Assembly (NCBI GenBank): GCA_937880065.1
Contig: CALFMA010000725.1
Span: forward strand, 1 to 5,851
Length of the DNA stretch: 5,851 nucleotides
Direction: 5' to 3'
Source: an uncultured Ruminococcus sp.
GTDB taxonomy: Bacteria; Bacillota_A; Clostridia; Oscillospirales; Ruminococcaceae
Each line of letters starts with the position of its first letter. Position 1 is the first letter of the stretch. Under the pieces are notes generated by a model. It saw nothing but the letters and a program-made list of their open reading frames with translations. It ran no database searches and was not told the DNA's origin. Shown one piece after another: positions 1 through 5,851 of the stretch. The position numbers were made by a program, and so were the translations under genes.

Positions 1-85
1 GTTTGCGGATGTGCGAGGCACTTTAATATAATTATACATCATTTTTTCTGATTTGTAAAGCGTAAATTATGATACTTTTTTATTG
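1..85. other. Non-coding upstream stretch, no gene seen
   Basis: This short AT-rich stretch lies upstream of promoter P1. All three forward frames close within about 50 bases, so any upstream gene ends at or before the window edge and cannot be identified. I see no terminator hairpin or RNA gene in it. Confidence 0.5.
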
Positions 86-114
86 TTGACAATAATTGAA
101 ATTTGGTGTATAAT
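86..114 (+). promoter_or_regulatory. Sigma-A promoter P1 for genes 1-2
   Basis: A perfect -35 box TTGACA (86-91) and a perfect -10 box TATAAT (109-114) are separated by 17 nt, the optimal housekeeping sigma spacing. The predicted transcription start is near 121, giving a short leader of about 24 nt before the ATG at 145. It sits directly upstream of gene 1 and should also drive gene 2, since no promoter of comparable quality lies in the 16-nt gap between them. Unlike P2 and P3, its surroundings do not contain the shared AAAAAGTATTGACTTTT block. Confidence 0.85.
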
Positions 115-129
115 AATAAAAAATAATTC

Positions 130-134
130 GGAGG
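130..134 (+). promoter_or_regulatory. Ribosome binding site that sets the gene 1 start
   Basis: GGAGG at 130-134 lies 10 nt before ATG 145 and 7 nt before an in-frame TTG at 142. The more upstream in-frame TTG at 136 is only 1 nt from the GGAGG, too close to be used. ATG 145 also gives a signal peptide that starts with a normal basic n-region (MNRLKK). Confidence 0.7.
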
Positions 135-144
135 ATTGATTTTG

Positions 145-1314
145 ATGAATAGATTAAAGAAAATGGCGGTTGTTGTTACAGCTATGGTAACTATGGGAAG
201 CGTTGCAAATATGCCGATTATTCAGAATGTTATAACAAATCCAACCTTAAATGCAAGTGCTGATTATTATGGGGATTTTGAATATTCTATTATTAAAATA
301 ACTGATACGCCTTATAAGGCAATAAACGGAACCTGTGTTATAACAAAATATTTGGGTACAGCTGAAACAGTAACTATTCCGTCAACCATTAACGGAATTA
401 AGGTGTGCGTAATCGGTGATAGTGCGTTTAAGGGGAATACAAAGGTTAAAAAAGTAATTTTGCCTGATACAATTATTGATTTGCAGGTAAGTGCCTTCCA
501 TGGCTGTACAAATCTTGAAACAATAAATACACCTGACAGTCTTAAAGTGATAAGATCCAACTGTTTTGAGAATTGCTCCAAATTAAAATCTTTTAACTTC
601 AATAAGGTTGAAATCATAGGCTGGTATATTTTGAAAAGCTGTAAAAGTATTACAGAAGCTTATATTCCCGGAACTTTAAAAAGAGTTGGTATCGGAGCAT
701 TTGAACAATGTACTAATCTCAAAACATTGACATTTGCCGAAGGAGTAGAAATAATTGAATCATACGTAGCATTAGATACTCCGGCTCTTGAGAAAATAAC
801 TATTGCGGGTAGTGTTAAGGAAATTAGTGACCTCGCTTTATGTTATGCCACATATAATTATAAAATTGATGAAAATACAAGCGGAACTACATATGTTTTG
901 TCTATTGATAACCTCAAAGAATACAACTTTGTTGAAGGTTCAGCTGCTGAACAATACGGAATTGACAAAGGAATAATCGAGGTTTTTGAGGGTGAATTCT
1001 CCTACGAAAACAATTTCGCTCCCATTCCTCCTCCAACATTTTATAATAAAGTGGGAGATCCAAACGGCAGCGGTGCTGTTGATGCCTCTGACGCATCAGT
1101 TGTTCTTGCGGAATACTCCGCAGTTCAGACAGGAAAAAAAGAAACTTTTACTGAAATGCAAAAAAGAATTGCGGATGTGAACAGAGATGGTTCAGTTGAT
1201 GCAGTTGATGCCTCTGAAATCCTCCGCTATTATGCAGAACTCTCCACAGGAAAAACTCCCACTTGGAGCTATACACCGAATATCGGAAACAAATTCCCAA
1301 ACTTAACTAGCTAA
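145..1314 (+). CDS. Secreted LRR_5 (BspA-like) dockerin protein, gene 1
   Basis: A 389-residue exported protein from ATG 145. Residues 1-21 form a signal peptide (MNRLKK, then a hydrophobic stretch rich in A, V, M, T). Cleavage could be after residue 21 or at ASA|D near residue 39. Residues about 62-232 hold degenerate LRR_5 repeats of the type 'CxxLxxxxxPxxLxxIgxxaFxxC', a fold known for binding proteins or surfaces, not catalysis. Residues 303-374 form a dockerin with two calcium loops: D305/N307/S309/D316 and D344/N346/D348/D355. Loop 1 has Ser where Asp is usual at position 5. A 15-residue tail follows the conserved PTW (372-374). The protein should be exported and attached to a cohesin encoded elsewhere; its ligand cannot be read from sequence. 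It ends in tandem TAA stops and is followed 16 nt later by gene 2, likely co-transcribed from P1. Domain calls are firm; biological role is unknown. Confidence 0.88.
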   Translation: MNRLKKMAVVVTAMVTMGSVANMPIIQNVITNPTLNASADYYGDFEYSIIKITDTPYKAINGTCVITKYLGTAETVTIPSTINGIKVCVIGDSAFKGNTKVKKVILPDTIIDLQVSAFHGCTNLETINTPDSLKVIRSNCFENCSKLKSFNFNKVEIIGWYILKSCKSITEAYIPGTLKRVGIGAFEQCTNLKTLTFAEGVEIIESYVALDTPALEKITIAGSVKEISDLALCYATYNYKIDENTSGTTYVLSIDNLKEYNFVEGSAAEQYGIDKGIIEVFEGEFSYENNFAPIPPPTFYNKVGDPNGSGAVDASDASVVLAEYSAVQTGKKETFTEMQKRIADVNRDGSVDAVDASEILRYYAELSTGKTPTWSYTPNIGNKFPNLTS

Positions 1315-1330: not shown

Positions 1331-2428
1331 ATGAATATTATTAAGCGTATTGTCAATATAGTTTTATCGGCTGCAATTTCTATAGGCTGTGTAGGTACTG
1401 TCTATAGAAATTATGAAAGTGAATATTCTTTTATCTGCTTAGCCGCTGGTGATTACCTCGGTGTTGAAGCGAATGATGACGGAACTTTAGCAATTTCTAA
1501 GTACACGGGAACAGCAGAAACAGTTGTAATTCCCGCAGCACACAATGGAAGAAAAATTACTTCTATCAAAAGAGATGTTTTCAAGAAAAATCAGTCAATA
1601 AAGAAAGTTGTTTTTTCCGAAAATTTAAAAAGAATTGAATATAATGCATTTGCGTCCTGTCCAAATCTTGAAATTGCAGAATTCCCCGACAGCCTTGAAG
1701 TTGTGGAGGAATATGCATTCGACAGATGCCCAAAGCTTTCAACGGTTAACCTTAACAATGTAAAAGAAGTGGGAAATTGTGCTTTTCAGCTTTGCACTTC
1801 ACTTACTTTTATACACGTTCCGGGAAGTTTAACCACACTTGTTGACCACGCTTTCCACGGCTGTGAAAATGTGTCAACAATGGTTATTGCTGAGGGTGTG
1901 AAAACAATTGAGGAAGATGCGGCATTGAACCTCTATAATCTCAAAAATATAACAATTCCAAAAAGTGTTACAAGTATTGCAGATAATTCATTGGGATTCT
2001 TTTACAGAAACGGTAATTACATTAAATCGGATGATGTTGTATTTAATGTATACAGCAATTCGGCTGGGCTTGAATATGCAAAGAAATTCGGATTTAATTA
2101 TATAGTCATTGACAGCCTTCTGACAACTCCAAATGCTACATATCCAAATATTGTACGTCCTCCTGTTAATACAAGCGTAACAACTGCAACACCTGTGTAT
2201 ATCATTGGCGATGCAAATAATGATGCGGTAATAGATTCTTCTGATGCGTCAACAGTTCTTGCGGAATATTCGGCAATTCAGACAGGTAAAAGCAGTTTGC
2301 TGGGAAATAGTCAGGAAAAAGCCGCCGATGTAAACGGTGACGGATTAATTAATTCCTCTGATGCTTCTGAAATACTTCAATACTACTCTAAAACCGCAAC
2401 AGGTTATCATCCAACTTGGAAGCGATAG
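1331..2428 (+). CDS. Secreted LRR_5 dockerin protein, gene 2
   Basis: A 365-residue protein starting at ATG 1331, with AAGGAAG at 1318-1324 six nt upstream. The N-terminus (MNIIKR plus a hydrophobic core to about residue 25) is a signal peptide. C20 sits in ISIGC, a weak lipobox look-alike with Ser at -3. LRR_5 repeats span about 52-222, followed by a cap strand near 237-262 (AGLEYAKKFGFNYIVI) typical of the end of such arrays. A Pro/Thr-rich linker (265-290) leads to a dockerin (291-363) with complete loops D294/N296/D298/D305 and D333/N335/D337/D344. It ends shortly after PTW. Positions 10-11 of both loops are Ser-Ser, as in gene 3. It is a close paralogue of gene 4, with near-identical DNA over the signal-peptide codons. 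Likely exported and cohesin-bound, acting as an adhesin or surface-binding module; no catalytic domain is seen. Confidence 0.88.
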   Translation: MNIIKRIVNIVLSAAISIGCVGTVYRNYESEYSFICLAAGDYLGVEANDDGTLAISKYTGTAETVVIPAAHNGRKITSIKRDVFKKNQSIKKVVFSENLKRIEYNAFASCPNLEIAEFPDSLEVVEEYAFDRCPKLSTVNLNNVKEVGNCAFQLCTSLTFIHVPGSLTTLVDHAFHGCENVSTMVIAEGVKTIEEDAALNLYNLKNITIPKSVTSIADNSLGFFYRNGNYIKSDDVVFNVYSNSAGLEYAKKFGFNYIVIDSLLTTPNATYPNIVRPPVNTSVTTATPVYIIGDANNDAVIDSSDASTVLAEYSAIQTGKSSLLGNSQEKAADVNGDGLINSSDASEILQYYSKTATGYHPTWKR

Positions 2429-2434
2429 TTTGTT

Positions 2435-2470
2435 AAAAAGTATTGACTTTTGATTTGTATATGTTATAAT
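2435..2470 (+). promoter_or_regulatory. Promoter P2 (extended -10) for genes 3-4
   Basis: TTGACT (2443-2448) and TATAAT (2465-2470) are 16 nt apart, with TG at 2462-2463 giving an extended -10 (TGTTATAAT). The -35 is embedded in a 17-nt block, AAAAAGTATTGACTTTT (2435-2451), that recurs exactly at P3. The promoter starts 7 nt after the gene 2 stop, and transcription would begin near 2477, inside the hairpin described next. It can serve gene 3 and, through the 18-nt gap, gene 4. Confidence 0.82.
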
Positions 2471-2520: not shown

Positions 2521-3390
2521 ATGAGAAAATTTAAAAAGTTTATGGCAATGTCAATGGCACTTGCGGTTTTGTCAACTTCAACAGCTGTAACATCTTTTGC
2601 AGCTTCAACAGAAACGGCAATTCCAATGGTAACCGCTGTGACAGAGGGGGAGGAAGAAACACCCTCAATAATTACAAGAACTATGGGTTCTTTAGAAATG
2701 ACTGTCAATCTGGAGAAAATTGAAGTTTTAATCAAAGAAACCACATCTGATATGTCTATGGAATTTAAAAAGGACGGCATATATATTGACGGTACAATAA
2801 TTGAAGCATTCGAAGATGAAGATAAATCCGAAACCGAATATGAAGCTACACAGGAAGATTTTGAATTTATTATGCTTGTGCTTGGTGTGCTTATGGAAAT
2901 TCAGACGGATAAGCTTATTTTTACTGATAATGTTATCGAAGTAAAATCCAACCTTATTGAAAACACTGGTGCCCCTGCTGAATATTTTGTACAGTTCGGA
3001 AAAAACATCAAATCAATTACTCCCGATTTGATAATTGCCCCTGATTCAAAAGTTACAATAGAGGGCTATAAGGGGACAGCTGCCGAAGTCTTTGCAGCTG
3101 AACAAAACTATACGTTCATTGCCCTTGACGAAACAGCTGATATTCCCGCTAAGTCCCATGAAAAAGGGGATATAAACGGTGACGGAGCAGTTGATTCTTC
3201 CGATGCCTCATCAGTTCTTGCAGGATATTCGGCAATTCAGACAGGGGGAGCATTGGATTTATCAGATGAACAGAAAAAAGCCGCTGATGTAAACGGTGAC
3301 AGCGTTGTTGATTCCTCTGATGCTTCTGAAATCCTCCGTTACTATGCTGACCTTTCTACAGGAAAAAATCCCACTTGGAACAACAACTAA
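2521..3390 (+). CDS. Secreted dockerin protein sharing its ectodomain with gene 5
   Basis: A 289-residue protein from ATG 2521, with GGAGG (2511-2515) 5 nt upstream; an in-frame GTG at 2488 lies upstream of that site and is not used. The signal peptide (MRKFKK, hydrophobic core, SFA|A near residue 27) closely resembles that of gene 5. Residues about 49-202 form an ectodomain I cannot assign to a named enzyme family. It is rich in beta-prone hydrophobic/charged alternation, has an acidic stretch around 97-115, and ends in a cap (GYKGTAAEVFAAEQNYTFIAL, in part) like the last strand of LRR_5 arrays. The dockerin (215-286) has full loops D217/N219/D221/D228 and D256/N258/D260/D267 and ends with PTW plus three Asn. 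It lies under P2 and 18 nt before gene 4. It is presumably exported and bound to a cohesin; the ectodomain partner is unknown. Confidence 0.87.
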   Translation: MRKFKKFMAMSMALAVLSTSTAVTSFAASTETAIPMVTAVTEGEEETPSIITRTMGSLEMTVNLEKIEVLIKETTSDMSMEFKKDGIYIDGTIIEAFEDEDKSETEYEATQEDFEFIMLVLGVLMEIQTDKLIFTDNVIEVKSNLIENTGAPAEYFVQFGKNIKSITPDLIIAPDSKVTIEGYKGTAAEVFAAEQNYTFIALDETADIPAKSHEKGDINGDGAVDSSDASSVLAGYSAIQTGGALDLSDEQKKAADVNGDSVVDSSDASEILRYYADLSTGKNPTWNNN

Positions 3391-3392
3391 TT

Positions 3393-3398
3393 GAGAGG
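3393..3398 (+). promoter_or_regulatory. Ribosome binding site that sets the gene 4 start
   Basis: GAGAGG (3393-3398) is 10 nt before ATG 3409 and only 1 nt before the in-frame ATG at 3400; a TTG at 3391 lies upstream of it. ATG 3409 is preferred because it aligns exactly with the gene 2 start (both begin MNIIKRIVNIVLSAA). Spacing is slightly long, as for gene 1. Confidence 0.65.
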
Positions 3399-3408
3399 TA
3401 TGAAAAAG

Positions 3409-4440
3409 ATGAATATTATAAAGCGTATTGTCAATATAGTTTTATCAGCCGCACTTTCTATAGGTTGTGTAGAGTTAATGCAGTACAATTATAATAAGGA
3501 TTTTTCAATAATAAGCTCAGCCGCAGAACTTGATTTTAAGACATCTGTCAATGATGACGGTACTATAGCAGTTTTTGGCTATTCAGGAACAGATGAAAAG
3601 GTTATAGTTCCCCGAACAATTGGTGAAAGAACGGTAACTGCTATTGGGAAATGCTGTTTCGAGGACAATCAGACAATAAAGGAAGTTGTTTTGCCCGACA
3701 CCATAAAAACCATTGATTACAAGGCATTTTCAAAATGTAAAAATCTTGAAACAGTAAATATTCCCGGCGGCATAGAAATTATTGATGAATATGCTTTTAC
3801 AACCTGTCACAGCCTGAAATCCATTGACCTTAAAAACGTCAAAAAACTTGGCAATTATGCTTTCCAGCTCTGTATATCCCTTGAAGAAATATATGTTCCC
3901 GGAAGTGTAACTACTGTTGTAGACCACGCTTTTCACGGCTGTCATAGTGTGAAAACGCTGACATTCGGCGAAGGAGTAAAAAAAATTGAAAGTACGGCTG
4001 CTTTAAATTCGTTCAGCATTGAAAAAATAACAATTCCCAAAAGTGTTACCGAAATAGGAGAATATGCGCTGGGATACTATTATTATCACCCGAATTATGT
4101 ACTCTTTTCTCCGACATTTTATGTGTACAACAACACAGCAGGACTTGAATATGCCAAAAATAACGGTTTTGACTATGTAATTATTGACGGAGCGGAAACA
4201 ACTGATTTTCTTTTAGGCGATGTCAATTCCGACGGAACAGTAAATTCATCTGACGCATCAGCAGTTCTTGCGGAATATTCGGCAATTCAGACTGGGGGAG
4301 CGTCAACTTTATCGGCTGAACAGAAAAAAGCCGCCGATGTAAACGCTGACAGCAAAATTGATTCAACAGACGCTTCAAAAATCCTTGAATATTACGCAGC
4401 TGTTTCAACAGGGCAGATTCCGAATTGGAATGAAATGTGA
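3409..4440 (+). CDS. Secreted LRR_5 dockerin protein, paralogue of gene 2
   Basis: A 343-residue protein from ATG 3409. The signal peptide (MNIIKRIVNIVLSAALSIGC) matches gene 2 at 19 of 20 residues. LRR_5 repeats span about 52-228 and include the block VPGS.TT.VDHAFHGC shared with gene 2. A cap strand near 237-260 (AGLEYAKNNGFDYVII) ends the array. Unlike gene 2 there is almost no linker: the dockerin starts at about 268. Its loops are D271/N273/D275/D282 and D310/N312/D314/D321, and it ends PNWNEM, so the terminal Trp is retained. It follows gene 3 by 18 nt and is probably translated from the same P2 transcript, pairing an LRR protein with the gene 3 module. Role is inferred as non-catalytic surface binding via a cohesin-dockerin contact; the cohesin is not in the window. 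Confidence 0.88.
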   Translation: MNIIKRIVNIVLSAALSIGCVELMQYNYNKDFSIISSAAELDFKTSVNDDGTIAVFGYSGTDEKVIVPRTIGERTVTAIGKCCFEDNQTIKEVVLPDTIKTIDYKAFSKCKNLETVNIPGGIEIIDEYAFTTCHSLKSIDLKNVKKLGNYAFQLCISLEEIYVPGSVTTVVDHAFHGCHSVKTLTFGEGVKKIESTAALNSFSIEKITIPKSVTEIGEYALGYYYYHPNYVLFSPTFYVYNNTAGLEYAKNNGFDYVIIDGAETTDFLLGDVNSDGTVNSSDASAVLAEYSAIQTGGASTLSAEQKKAADVNADSKIDSTDASKILEYYAAVSTGQIPNWNEM

Positions 4441-4460
4441 AAAAATTGTGAATTTTCAGG

Positions 4461-4496
4461 AAAAAGTATTGACTTTTAATATATGTGTGCTATAAT
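4461..4496 (+). promoter_or_regulatory. Promoter P3 (extended -10) for gene 5
   Basis: TTGACT (4469-4474) and TATAAT (4491-4496) are 16 nt apart, and TGC directly before TATAAT gives an extended -10. The block AAAAAGTATTGACTTTT (4461-4477) is identical to that of P2, and the architecture (16-nt spacer, extended -10, hairpin next to the start) is the same, so the two promoters look duplicated and probably share control. Transcription would start near 4503, leaving a leader of about 60 nt. Confidence 0.82.
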
Positions 4497-4499
4497 ATA

Positions 4500-4522
4500 G
4501 GTGTATACTTGACGTATATATC
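4500..4522 (+). promoter_or_regulatory. Leader hairpin of gene 5
   Basis: Arms 4500-4508 and 4514-4522 pair across a 5-nt loop: 9 pairs with two G-U. It occupies the same place relative to the -10 as the hairpin at P2 but differs in stem sequence and has no T-tract after it, so it is unlikely to terminate. It may shield the 5' end of the mRNA or mark a DNA operator. At 9 AT-rich pairs, chance is a real alternative. Confidence 0.35.
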
Positions 4523-4548
4523 ATAGCTTAATTTACTTTAACACAATC

Positions 4549-4555
4549 AGGAGGT
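4549..4555 (+). promoter_or_regulatory. Strong ribosome binding site of gene 5
   Basis: AGGAGGT is the fullest anti-16S match in the window, with AGGAGG ending 8 nt before ATG 4563. It suggests that the anchored protein is translated at a high level compared with genes 2 and 4, whose sites are weaker. Confidence 0.75.
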
Positions 4556-4562
4556 CATAATT

Positions 4563-5471
4563 ATGAAGACATTCAGAAAAATCACAGCTTGGGCAATGGC
4601 TCTCGCAATCTCATCAACAGCAACAGCTGTAACTGCTTTTGCAGATGAAACTGAAACTACAACAACAGAGGCTGTAACTACTACTTTGGCAGAAGTTGTA
4701 ACAACTACAACTGCTCCTACAGAAAATGCTCCCATAATTGTTGATAATGCAAGAGCACAATTCGGTACGGTTACAGTTAAAGTTAAAGACGACACAGTTA
4801 CAAAGGAAGTTTCAATCAAGGATTCCGCAACAGGAATGAGTGTTGAATTAAAGGGAAATACCGTTAATTTCGACGGCTCCGTTATTCAGACAATTGATAT
4901 TTCCAATACTGAGCTTACAGATGAACAAAATGCCGTTCTTGCCGGACTTCTTAAAGTTGCATCATCAGTTAAGGTTGATACATTGAATTTCTCTGACAAT
5001 GTTACAGAGGTAAAGTCAATGGCTATCGGCAATGCAATGTCTGAAAATTTAACAATGGTATTCGGTAAGAACATCAAGACAATTGCTGATGATTTACTTG
5101 GCGAATCAACTGCAAAGGTAACAATTAAGGGTTATAAGGGTACAGCTGCTGAAACATTTGCGGCATCAAAGAATTACACATTTGTTGCTCTTGACGAACC
5201 TGCTGTAACTACAACAGAAACTACACCAATAACCACAACAACTCTTGATAATACAACAACTACAACTGCATCTTTATCAACAACTACAACAGCATCTTCA
5301 TCAACAAGCACAACAACTACAAAGAAATCAACTACAACAAGCAAGGCTACAACAACTAAGGCAGGCAGTTCACCTAAGACAGGGGATTCAGGCGTTGGTG
5401 CAGTTGCAGGTATCCTCGCACTTTCCGCAGTAACAGGTGCAATTGCTCTCAGAAAGAAAGATAACGAATAA
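4563..5471 (+). CDS. Sortase-anchored surface protein with the gene 3 ectodomain
   Basis: A 302-residue protein from ATG 4563. The signal peptide (MKTFRK, hydrophobic core, AFA|D after residue 27) is followed by a Thr-rich segment (28-52). The ectodomain (about 56-211) aligns along its length with gene 3, best from 'SDNVTEVKS' to the end: FGKNIK, then VTI.GYKGTAAE.FAA..NYTF.ALDE. This end resembles LRR_5 array caps. A long Thr/Ser-rich stalk (215-269) leads to SPKTG (270-274), a hydrophobic span (about 277-295) and a basic tail RKKDNE, the three-part layout of a cell-wall sorting signal, with Ser in place of Leu in LPXTG. Sortase should link Thr273 to peptidoglycan. It has no dockerin and no recognisable cohesin. 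It sits alone between P3 and a strong terminator, with tandem TAA stops. The ectodomain function is unknown; it could display a binding site or interact with the gene 3 module. Confidence 0.88.
   Translation: MKTFRKITAWAMALAISSTATAVTAFADETETTTTEAVTTTLAEVVTTTTAPTENAPIIVDNARAQFGTVTVKVKDDTVTKEVSIKDSATGMSVELKGNTVNFDGSVIQTIDISNTELTDEQNAVLAGLLKVASSVKVDTLNFSDNVTEVKSMAIGNAMSENLTMVFGKNIKTIADDLLGESTAKVTIKGYKGTAAETFAASKNYTFVALDEPAVTTTETTPITTTTLDNTTTTTASLSTTTTASSSTSTTTTKKSTTTSKATTTKAGSSPKTGDSGVGAVAGILALSAVTGAIALRKKDNE
5206..5369 (+). repeat. Low-complexity Thr/Ser stalk-coding DNA (ACA/ACT runs)
   Basis: Imperfect runs of ACA, ACT and ACC codons, with some TCA/TCT, encode residues 215-269 of gene 5. A shorter stretch of the same kind lies at about 4644-4712. 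Such tracts commonly form extended wall-spanning stalks, often glycosylated, and are prone to length change by slippage. Basic residues appear only toward the C-terminal end (KK, SK, TK), next to the sorting motif. Confidence 0.8.
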
Positions 5472-5560: not shown

Positions 5561-5851
5561 TTACTCATCGCTGTTTTTATACTCAATTCCCACATTTTTC
5601 AAAGTGCGGTTAATGGCATTTGTCCTTGTTCCGATGAGAGTTTCAAGGTCTTTATCAGCCATTCTGAGGCGATTTCTTGCAGATTCCAGAACATTTTCAA
5701 AGTTGGCAAATTCCGATTTTGCTTCTTCAAGAATTTTCTCTTTAATCAATCCCATCATGACTTCATCAAAATCATTTCCTCCAAGATTTTGATCTCCTCC
5801 ATTTGATGTAACTCTGATTCCTTCTTCTTCATTATAAACACATAGATCAAT
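5561..5851 (-). CDS. 3' end of an Hsp70-like / RmuC-tail gene, partial
   Basis: The minus-strand frame is open from the window edge (5851) to the TAA at 5563-5561: 96 residues, with the start outside. Its first ~30 residues read like the Hsp70/DnaK ATPase stretch after the phosphate loop: VTSNGGDQNLGGNDFDEVM, with LGGNDFD at 5765-5785 matching the family hallmark LGGxDFD. Instead of the rest of the Hsp70 ATPase lobe, the frame goes on with a charged helical tail (KSEFANFENVLESARNRL … LIGTRTNAINRTLKNV, the latter at 5591-5638). From memory this resembles the C-terminus of Firmicutes RmuC proteins (usual form LVGTRTRAIQRKLRxV). It is either a chimera with its junction near 5717-5734, a decayed gene fusion, or an Hsp70-like protein with an unusual tail. 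That it is coding is fairly sure; its identity is not. It converges on gene 5 and appears unrelated to the dockerin cluster. Confidence 0.65.
   Translation of the reverse strand: MDLCVYNEEEGIRVTSNGGDQNLGGNDFDEVMMGLIKEKILEEAKSEFANFENVLESARNRLRMADKDLETLIGTRTNAINRTLKNVGIEYKNSDE

What the first reader, a model, noticed from the sequence alone, without database searches (positions are those of the whole stretch)
2521..5471. One ectodomain on two surface-attachment devices: dockerin (gene 3) and sortase signal (gene 5)
Gene 3 residues ~49-202 and gene 5 residues ~56-211 align from end to end, with clear identity in the last ~75 residues (DNV.EVKS, FGKNIK, KVTI.GYKGTAAE.FAA, NYTF.ALDE). After that, gene 3 continues into a dockerin and gene 5 into a Thr-rich stalk and SPKTG anchor. 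Their signal peptides and promoters are also alike. A non-covalent and a covalent version of the same module side by side suggests a surface system where a wall-bound copy and a scaffold-bound copy cooperate, for example by self-association or by presenting the same ligand site at two places. The ectodomain matches no enzyme family I know. That genes 3 and 5 interact is inference.
Basis: partly seen in the sequence, partly recalled or inferred. Interest (0 to 1): 0.7.

Follow-up and report, generated by a model that had tools for sequence, protein, structure and literature searches.

The report
Swappable surface domain on two anchors
A gut Ruminococcus carries the same small surface domain on a cell-wall-anchored protein and on a scaffold-docking protein, and the outer part of that domain appears to have been exchanged between strains while the ends of each gene stayed almost the same.

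Summary
Genes 3 and 5 share one domain (42% identity over 221 residues, E 2e-38), with alike promoters and signal peptides; gene 3 ends in a dockerin, gene 5 in a Thr-rich stalk and SPKTG signal. The domain is not wholly unknown: its C half is a short BspA/LRR_5-like repeat with cap. In a genus survey it occurs in 9 of 125 genomes: the sortase form in 9 of 9, the dockerin form in 2 of 9, next to or one gene from the sortase form. Showing one module both ways has a precedent in R. bromii (PMC9112005), so the architecture is a variant of a known kind. Core and ends of gene 3 give conflicting trees. The domain is best read as an allele-swapped surface cassette, perhaps kept variable by a changing partner. 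The partner, selection, and contact between proteins 3 and 5 are not shown.

The parts
2521..3390 (+). gene 3: signal peptide, ectodomain (about 2665-3129), dockerin; 289 aa
3163..3342 (+). type I dockerin of gene 3 (residues 215-274), two Ca-loop motifs
   Evidence: Pfam PF00404 41.7 bits; loops by pattern in P0108
2651..3054 (+). replaced core of the gene 3 ectodomain: 53% DNA identity to L003 inside a block that is otherwise about 95% identical
   Evidence: tree conflict
3055..3138 (+). conserved LRR_5-like C-terminal cap of the gene 3 ectodomain (GYKGTAAE..FIALD)
4563..5471 (+). gene 5: signal peptide, ectodomain (about 4728-5195), Thr-rich stalk, sortase signal; 302 aa
4658..4880 (+). diverged linker and N part of the gene 5 ectodomain (65% DNA identity to L003)
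5183..5368 (+). Thr-rich stalk of gene 5, variable in length and sequence (74% to L003)
5370..5387 (+). SPKTGD sorting motif, followed by hydrophobic stretch and RKKDNE
   Evidence: sequence; (below curated cut-offs); SPKTGD in 56 of 57 gene-5-type proteins
2443..2470 (+). promoter-like site of gene 3 (TTGACT-16-TATAAT)
4469..4496 (+). promoter-like site of gene 5 (TTGACT-16-TATAAT), in a region alike that of gene 3
145..1314 (+). gene 1: LRR_5 protein with dockerin (neighbour)
1331..2428 (+). gene 2: LRR_5 protein with dockerin (neighbour)
3391..4440 (+). gene 4: LRR_5 protein with dockerin (neighbour)
5561..5740 (-). 3' end of rmuC, convergent downstream neighbour of gene 5
   Evidence: 98% aa identity to the L003 rmuC over 59 residues; the L001 homologue matches PF02646 with 232 bits

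Best explanation
Gene 5 is the older form: a sortase-anchored surface protein whose ectodomain is a beta-rich N part on a short BspA/LRR_5-like repeat and cap, held off the wall by a Thr-rich stalk. It was duplicated, most simply once, with its promoter and signal peptide, and the copy (gene 3) received a dockerin, probably from the LRR-dockerin genes beside it, so the same kind of domain is also shown on cohesin scaffolds. Conserved ends (signal peptide on one side, cap plus dockerin or anchor on the other) serve as homology arms through which strains and species exchange the middle of the ectodomain by ordinary recombination. Shown: homology, the two tails, the replaced core of gene 3, conflicting trees of core and ends, gene 5 ectodomains shared across three species-level genomes. 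Inferred: that dockerin and sortase signal work, the order of events, and that the exchange is kept by selection because the domain meets a changing partner (phage, competitor, host antibody or a recognition ligand).
For: Homology and tails. Sortase form in 9 of 9 genomes with the domain, dockerin form in 2 of 9, next to it (L002) or one gene away (L003). The five gene 3 ectodomains fall in one clade, 95/97, 96% of 200 bootstrap trees, in a 25-row tree. In its own locus gene 3's dockerin DNA is closest to gene 4 (76% over 200 bases) and gene 2 (75% over 190). Replacement: window against L003 core dS 2.0, dN 0.74; signal peptide and linker dS 0.13, cap 0.10, dockerin 0.18, genes 1, 2, 4 0.08-0.15; edges at 2651 and 3054. 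Protein 3 is 89/90/87% identical to P0110 (= L003) at signal+linker/cap/dockerin but 29% in the core; to P0109 60/70/56% outside and 71% in the core. AU tests reject the ends grouping on the core (p 0.035) and the core pair on the ends (p 1.9e-5). Gene 5: in 3 of 15 locus pairs (L001, L002, L003 with each other) the ectodomain dS is 0.11-0.22 while flanking rmuC, AMP-binding and thrH-like genes are 0.49-1.12. Among 16 gene 5 cluster representatives signal peptide and anchor average 99% identity but the N part 77%; among 9 others 99% and 94% against 55% in the middle.
Against: Only one close pair (window, L003) was available as DNA. In the other 12 of 15 gene 5 pairs the ectodomain dS (0.36-1.37) lies within or above the range of the flanking genes. 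PHI is positive for the flanking control genes too: rmuC 0 of 1000, AMP-binding gene 5 of 1000, gene 5 DNA only 23 of 1000 with and 70 of 1000 without the window, so recombination is general in this group. Core dS is saturated and dN below dS, so positive selection is not shown. The tree tool warned that the long P0110/P0111 branch may join falsely, the root is a midpoint and 10 of 22 inner branches are open, so the single origin is not secure. Gene 3's dockerin was not compared with the many others in these genomes. Alleles are representatives clustered at 90% and grouped by eye, which overstates diversity. All sequences are metagenomic. Most R. flavefaciens dockerins from LRR proteins did not bind tested cohesins on microarrays (PMC5301203, passages read).
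Confidence: 0.5

Rival explanations
1. A fixed-ligand binding module (plant or host glycan) shown both on the wall and on the cellulosome, as with starch modules in R. bromii; the variation is neutral and comes from general recombination.
For: Precedent of related modules on dockerin and sortase proteins (PMC9112005, passages); cohesin and dockerin matches in 9 of 9 genomes; control genes recombine too.
Against: No Trp in 60 of 60 ectodomains checked (2 of 62 were missed by the cap pattern), unusual for a glycan platform, though Tyr is present. The replaced cores lie in the two paralogues while three secreted proteins beside them stay 93-97% identical.
Confidence: 0.22
2. One reading: proteins 3 and 5 cooperate directly, a wall-bound and a scaffold-bound copy that self-associate.
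For: In the loci read, the dockerin form was only seen with the sortase form (window, L002, L003); both ectodomains differ between the same two strains.
Against: The sortase form is without the dockerin form in 7 of 9 genomes; gene 3 and gene 5 cores lie in separate parts of the tree; no complex was modelled.
Confidence: 0.13
3. The replaced core is an assembly artefact: strains were merged in one or both metagenomic contigs.
For: The window's right end joins rmuC to a DnaK-like piece, probably a chimeric contig end; P0013 is a perfect two-part mosaic (28 of 28 and 44 of 44 sites) that an assembler could also make; G003 is large (4.1 Mb).
Against: The window's gene 3 allele is 99% identical to P0108, a cluster of 34 member sequences; the other allele, P0110, has 7 members on 9 contigs. 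The nearest known protein with the window's core type, P0109, has quite different ends, so a stray join would need a strain not seen.
Confidence: 0.07
4. The likeness of genes 3 and 5 is only a generic LRR_5 cap and says nothing about a shared module.
For: The C half aligns with the caps of genes 1, 2 and 4 by profile comparison, 96.5%, E 7.5e-10.
Against: The N half alone scores z=7.6, signal peptides and promoters match too, and direct comparison with genes 1, 2, 4 is weak: the best is z=3.1, gene 4 with the gene 5 domain.
Confidence: 0.03

Closest known systems
R. bromii amylosome: Sas20 (dockerin), Sca5 and a predicted wall-anchored Sas20d1-like protein (sortase signals) (PMC9112005, passages read)
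   Same: Related binding modules on a dockerin protein and on sortase-signal proteins of one Ruminococcus.
   Different: Those modules are X25-type and Sas20d1-type starch binders; no sequence comparison with them was made here; allele swapping is not mentioned in the passages read.
LRR-dockerin proteins of R. flavefaciens FD-1 and R. bromii (PMC2930009, PMC5301203, PMC9112005, passages read)
   Same: Signal peptide, LRR domain and dockerin, as genes 1, 2 and 4, and distantly gene 3.
   Different: Gene 3 has no Pfam LRR match of its own and has a sortase-anchored sister.
BspA-type LRR proteins with solved structures: 4h09, 4oju, PcpA 4cp6
Mosaic surface antigens with conserved ends and exchanged middles (recalled from general knowledge, no call)
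   Same: Exchanged segments between conserved ends.
   Different: Here in a gut commensal, on two attachment devices, with no selective pressure shown.

Membership tests
Type I dockerin (PF00404), gene 3 | Pfam score over cut-off and two Ca-loop motifs | tested here: met
   41.7 bits, cut-off 22.9; two loops in P0108-P0112, 5 of 5
Type I dockerin, gene 3 | binds a cohesin | not testable with these tools
   cohesin matches exist in 9 of 9 genomes
Sortase substrate, gene 5 | LPXTG-like motif, hydrophobic stretch, basic tail | tested here: met
   SPKTGD...RKKDNE in the sequence; SPKTGD in 56 of 57 relatives; NF033846 matched by 38 of 45 alignment members at E 0.01
Sortase substrate, gene 5 | score over curated anchor-model cut-off | tested here: not met
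   NF033846 17.5 against 23.5; TIGR01167 14.0 against 15.9
BspA-type LRR_5 (PF13306), ectodomain of genes 3 and 5 | Pfam match of the protein itself | tested here: not met
   no match for genes 3 or 5; 10 of 45 family members match at E 0.01, best 7.8e-8
BspA-type LRR_5, ectodomain | profile and fold likeness to LRR_5 | tested here: inconclusive
Cassette-switching antigenic variation | silent copies of the domain elsewhere in the genome | tested here: not met
   G002 and G003 each show only the gene 3 and gene 5 copies at E 1e-15 (24 of 26 candidates scored; MAGs, completeness unstated)
Mosaic surface antigen | exchanged segment with conflicting trees | tested here: met
   (one close DNA pair, five proteins)
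Mosaic surface antigen | diversifying selection | tested here: inconclusive
   core dS saturated, dN below dS

The most novel reading that the evidence does not exclude
A gut cellulosome-type Ruminococcus shows one recognition domain in two places, on the wall and on its scaffold, and renews the outer part of both by allele exchange across strains and species: a population-level antigen or receptor variation system tied to a fibre-degrading machine.
Probability: 0.35. Interest if true: 0.68.

Novelty: new variant of a known kind. Interest (0 to 1): 0.5.

Why it matters
Exchanged ectodomains between conserved ends often mark a surface that something outside the cell attacks or recognises (general knowledge). 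If that holds for a dockerin protein, cellulosome-type scaffolds of commensals also carry exposed recognition modules under change, and this locus beside rmuC gives a place where phage, antibody or partner recognition in herbivore-gut Ruminococcus could be tested.

Tried and rejected
Foldseek against the PDB gave no match at E 0.001 (best 0.22, unrelated integrase and ClpP rows); not read as a new fold. The cap-only reading was rejected on the N half, promoters and signal peptides. Silent cassettes were looked for and not found at E 1e-15; the weaker matches cover, by their listed ranges, mostly the cap and dockerin or the anchor end. PHI was tried as proof that recombination is special to gene 5 and failed as such, because control genes are positive too. 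Positive selection was looked for by dN and dS and not shown. Paper searches for Ruminococcus + intragenic recombination + surface protein, and for dockerin + hypervariable + recombination + Ruminococcus, gave 0 papers each; a BspA/allelic search held 7 and listed 6 papers, none on this by title and abstract start. After the filing check I lowered the main confidence from 0.55 to 0.50 because of the tree tool's long-branch warning and the 12 of 15 gene 5 pairs without cross-species sharing, and raised the first rival by 0.02.
Full report
WHAT IS THERE. The window has five secreted-protein genes on the + strand and, on the - strand at the right end, the 3' end of rmuC. Genes 1, 2 and 4 are LRR_5 proteins with a C-terminal type I dockerin; gene 3 has a dockerin and no other Pfam match at E 0.1; gene 5 has no Pfam match above cut-off. 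Genes 3 and 5 share one ectodomain: 42% identity over 221 residues including the signal peptides, E 2e-38. The C half is the clearer part (z=35), but the N half alone also beats 2000 of 2000 shuffles (z=7.6). Their upstream regions are alike (score 95.5; 500 shuffles 55.9 +/- 4.8), while gene 1's is not clearly so (66.5 against 57.9 +/- 5.0). The window's origin is not given; its nearest relatives are called Ruminococcus sp..

WHERE IT OCCURS. A scan of genome contigs with protein 5 gave 9 loci, 8 of them from Ruminococcus MAGs of sheep, goat, water buffalo, water deer and an isolate called Lapin; the ninth, L009, matched 51 residues of the cap inside an LRR protein and was dropped. A gene 5 homologue with a sortase-type motif is present in these 8 of 8. 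A HAD-type phosphatase (called thrH-like by recall; only the L001 copy was scanned) lies upstream in 6 of 8; L004 and L005 have too little upstream sequence to tell. rmuC follows convergently in 6 of 8 (L001-L006); in L007 and L008 another gene follows (acyltransferase-type in L007). Directly upstream, LRR-dockerin genes number none in L007 and L008, one in L001, L005 and L006, one plus gene 3 in L002, and the full set in L003; L004 cannot be told. A survey of 125 genomes of the genus found the domain (E 1e-15) in 9: these 8 plus G039, whose copy is SPKTG-type and followed by an rmuC-like frame (by eye). Two (G002, G003) have the dockerin form. In 396 genomes drawn from the family only G003 and G004 matched at E 1e-12. 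In both surveys only the best candidates of candidate-rich genomes were scored (24 and 7), and completeness is unstated. In the loci read, the dockerin form was not seen without the sortase form; the reverse is common (7 of 9). The context of P0109 and P0111 is not known.

HOW IT AROSE. In a tree of 25 ectodomains the five gene 3 sequences form one clade (95/97; 96% of 200 bootstrap trees) among gene 5 sequences. The root is a midpoint, 10 of 22 inner branches are open, and the tool warns that the long P0110/P0111 branch may be placed falsely, so nesting and a single origin are a reading, not a proof. In its own locus gene 3's dockerin is closest to genes 4 and 2 (76% and 75% DNA identity), and L002's to the L002 LRR gene (73%); other dockerins of these genomes were not compared. 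With the shared promoter region, gene 3 looks like a duplicate of gene 5 that lost its anchor for a neighbour's dockerin.

THE EXCHANGED CORE. Window and L003 share the five-gene order at 95-97% DNA identity in genes 1, 2 and 4. A two-state segmentation puts diverged tracts at 1-202 (67%), 2651-3054 (53%), 3918-3927, 4658-4880 (65%), 5183-5368 (74%, the stalk) and 5739-5851 (contig end). In gene 3 the core has dS 2.0 against 0.10-0.18 in signal peptide with linker, cap and dockerin: this is replacement, not fast point mutation. The core type is shared with P0109 and P0112: the window's core is 71% and 51% identical to theirs but 29% to P0110 (= L003), while its ends are 87-90% identical to P0110 and 36-70% to P0109 and P0112. 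AU tests support the conflict in both directions (p 0.035 and 1.9e-5; five sequences, groups named after seeing the identities). Even within the L003 core type, P0110 and P0111 are 97-99% alike outside and 79% in the core. A search with P0110 returned 23 proteins at E 1e-20; by coverage and identity only P0111, and more distantly P0108, match over the full length.

GENE 5 BEHAVES ALIKE. Among 16 cluster representatives with the window's anchor, signal peptide and anchor are 99% identical on average, the N part 77%; among 9 of another group the middle falls to 55% while signal peptide and anchor stay at 99% and 94%. These are 90% cluster representatives grouped by eye, so diversity is overstated. 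Across genomes, L001, L002 and L003 share gene 5 ectodomains at dS 0.11-0.22 while rmuC, the AMP-binding gene and the thrH-like gene are at 0.49-1.12 (two further genes of L001-L002 are at 0.31 and 0.43). The other 12 of 15 pairs do not show it: their ectodomain dS (0.36-1.37) lies within or above the range of the flanking genes. P0013 is a clean two-part mosaic of the L001 and P0002 types (28 of 28, 44 of 44 sites), which an assembler might also produce. PHI is strongly positive for 38 gene 5 proteins (0 of 1000), weaker for gene 5 DNA (23 of 1000 for 7 sequences, 70 of 1000 for 6), and positive for rmuC and the AMP-binding gene too (0 and 5 of 1000), so recombination as such is common here; what stands out is where the large tracts lie in the one close pair.

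HOW IT MAY WORK. Each of the 9 genomes has matches to cohesin (1-16), sortase (1-13) and dockerin (27-88) models, so both attachments are plausible. LRR-dockerin proteins are known in R. flavefaciens and R. bromii (PMC2930009, PMC5301203, PMC9112005; passages only), and R. bromii has related modules on dockerin and sortase proteins (PMC9112005), so the dual display has precedent. The exchanged outer part, between conserved ends that can recombine, fits a domain that meets a changing partner. That is inference: no partner is known, no selection was shown, and interaction between proteins 3 and 5 was not tested. In PMC5301203 most dockerins from LRR proteins did not bind tested cohesins, although several LRR-Doc rows in its table are marked positive.

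VERDICT. Observation confirmed; interpretation partly supported. Architecture: a new variant of a known kind. The exchanged core is the stronger finding, of moderate interest until close long-read genomes and a binding partner are available.

Noticed in passing
window 5739-5851: The - strand frame joins the 3' end of rmuC to a DnaK/HscA-like piece (weak HSP70, DnaK and HscA matches); identity to L003 ends at 5738. Probably a chimeric contig end.
   Followed up: partly
window 1-202: The promoter region and signal peptide of gene 1 are also diverged from L003 (67%); by eye the signal peptide is closer to that of the L002 gene 1, a further possible recombination edge.
   Followed up: partly
P0026: A gene-5-type database protein ends in an unrelated tail without SPKTG, perhaps an adapter or assembly artefact.
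   Followed up: no
L005 215-988: A dockerin protein with an unplaced N-terminal domain lies upstream of the LRR-dockerin gene at this locus; Pfam at E 0.001 shows only the dockerin and a weak FG-GAP match at its start.
   Followed up: partly
L007 14653-16323: A dockerin protein with a long Ser-Thr repeat stalk lies a few genes from the gene 5 homologue.
   Followed up: no
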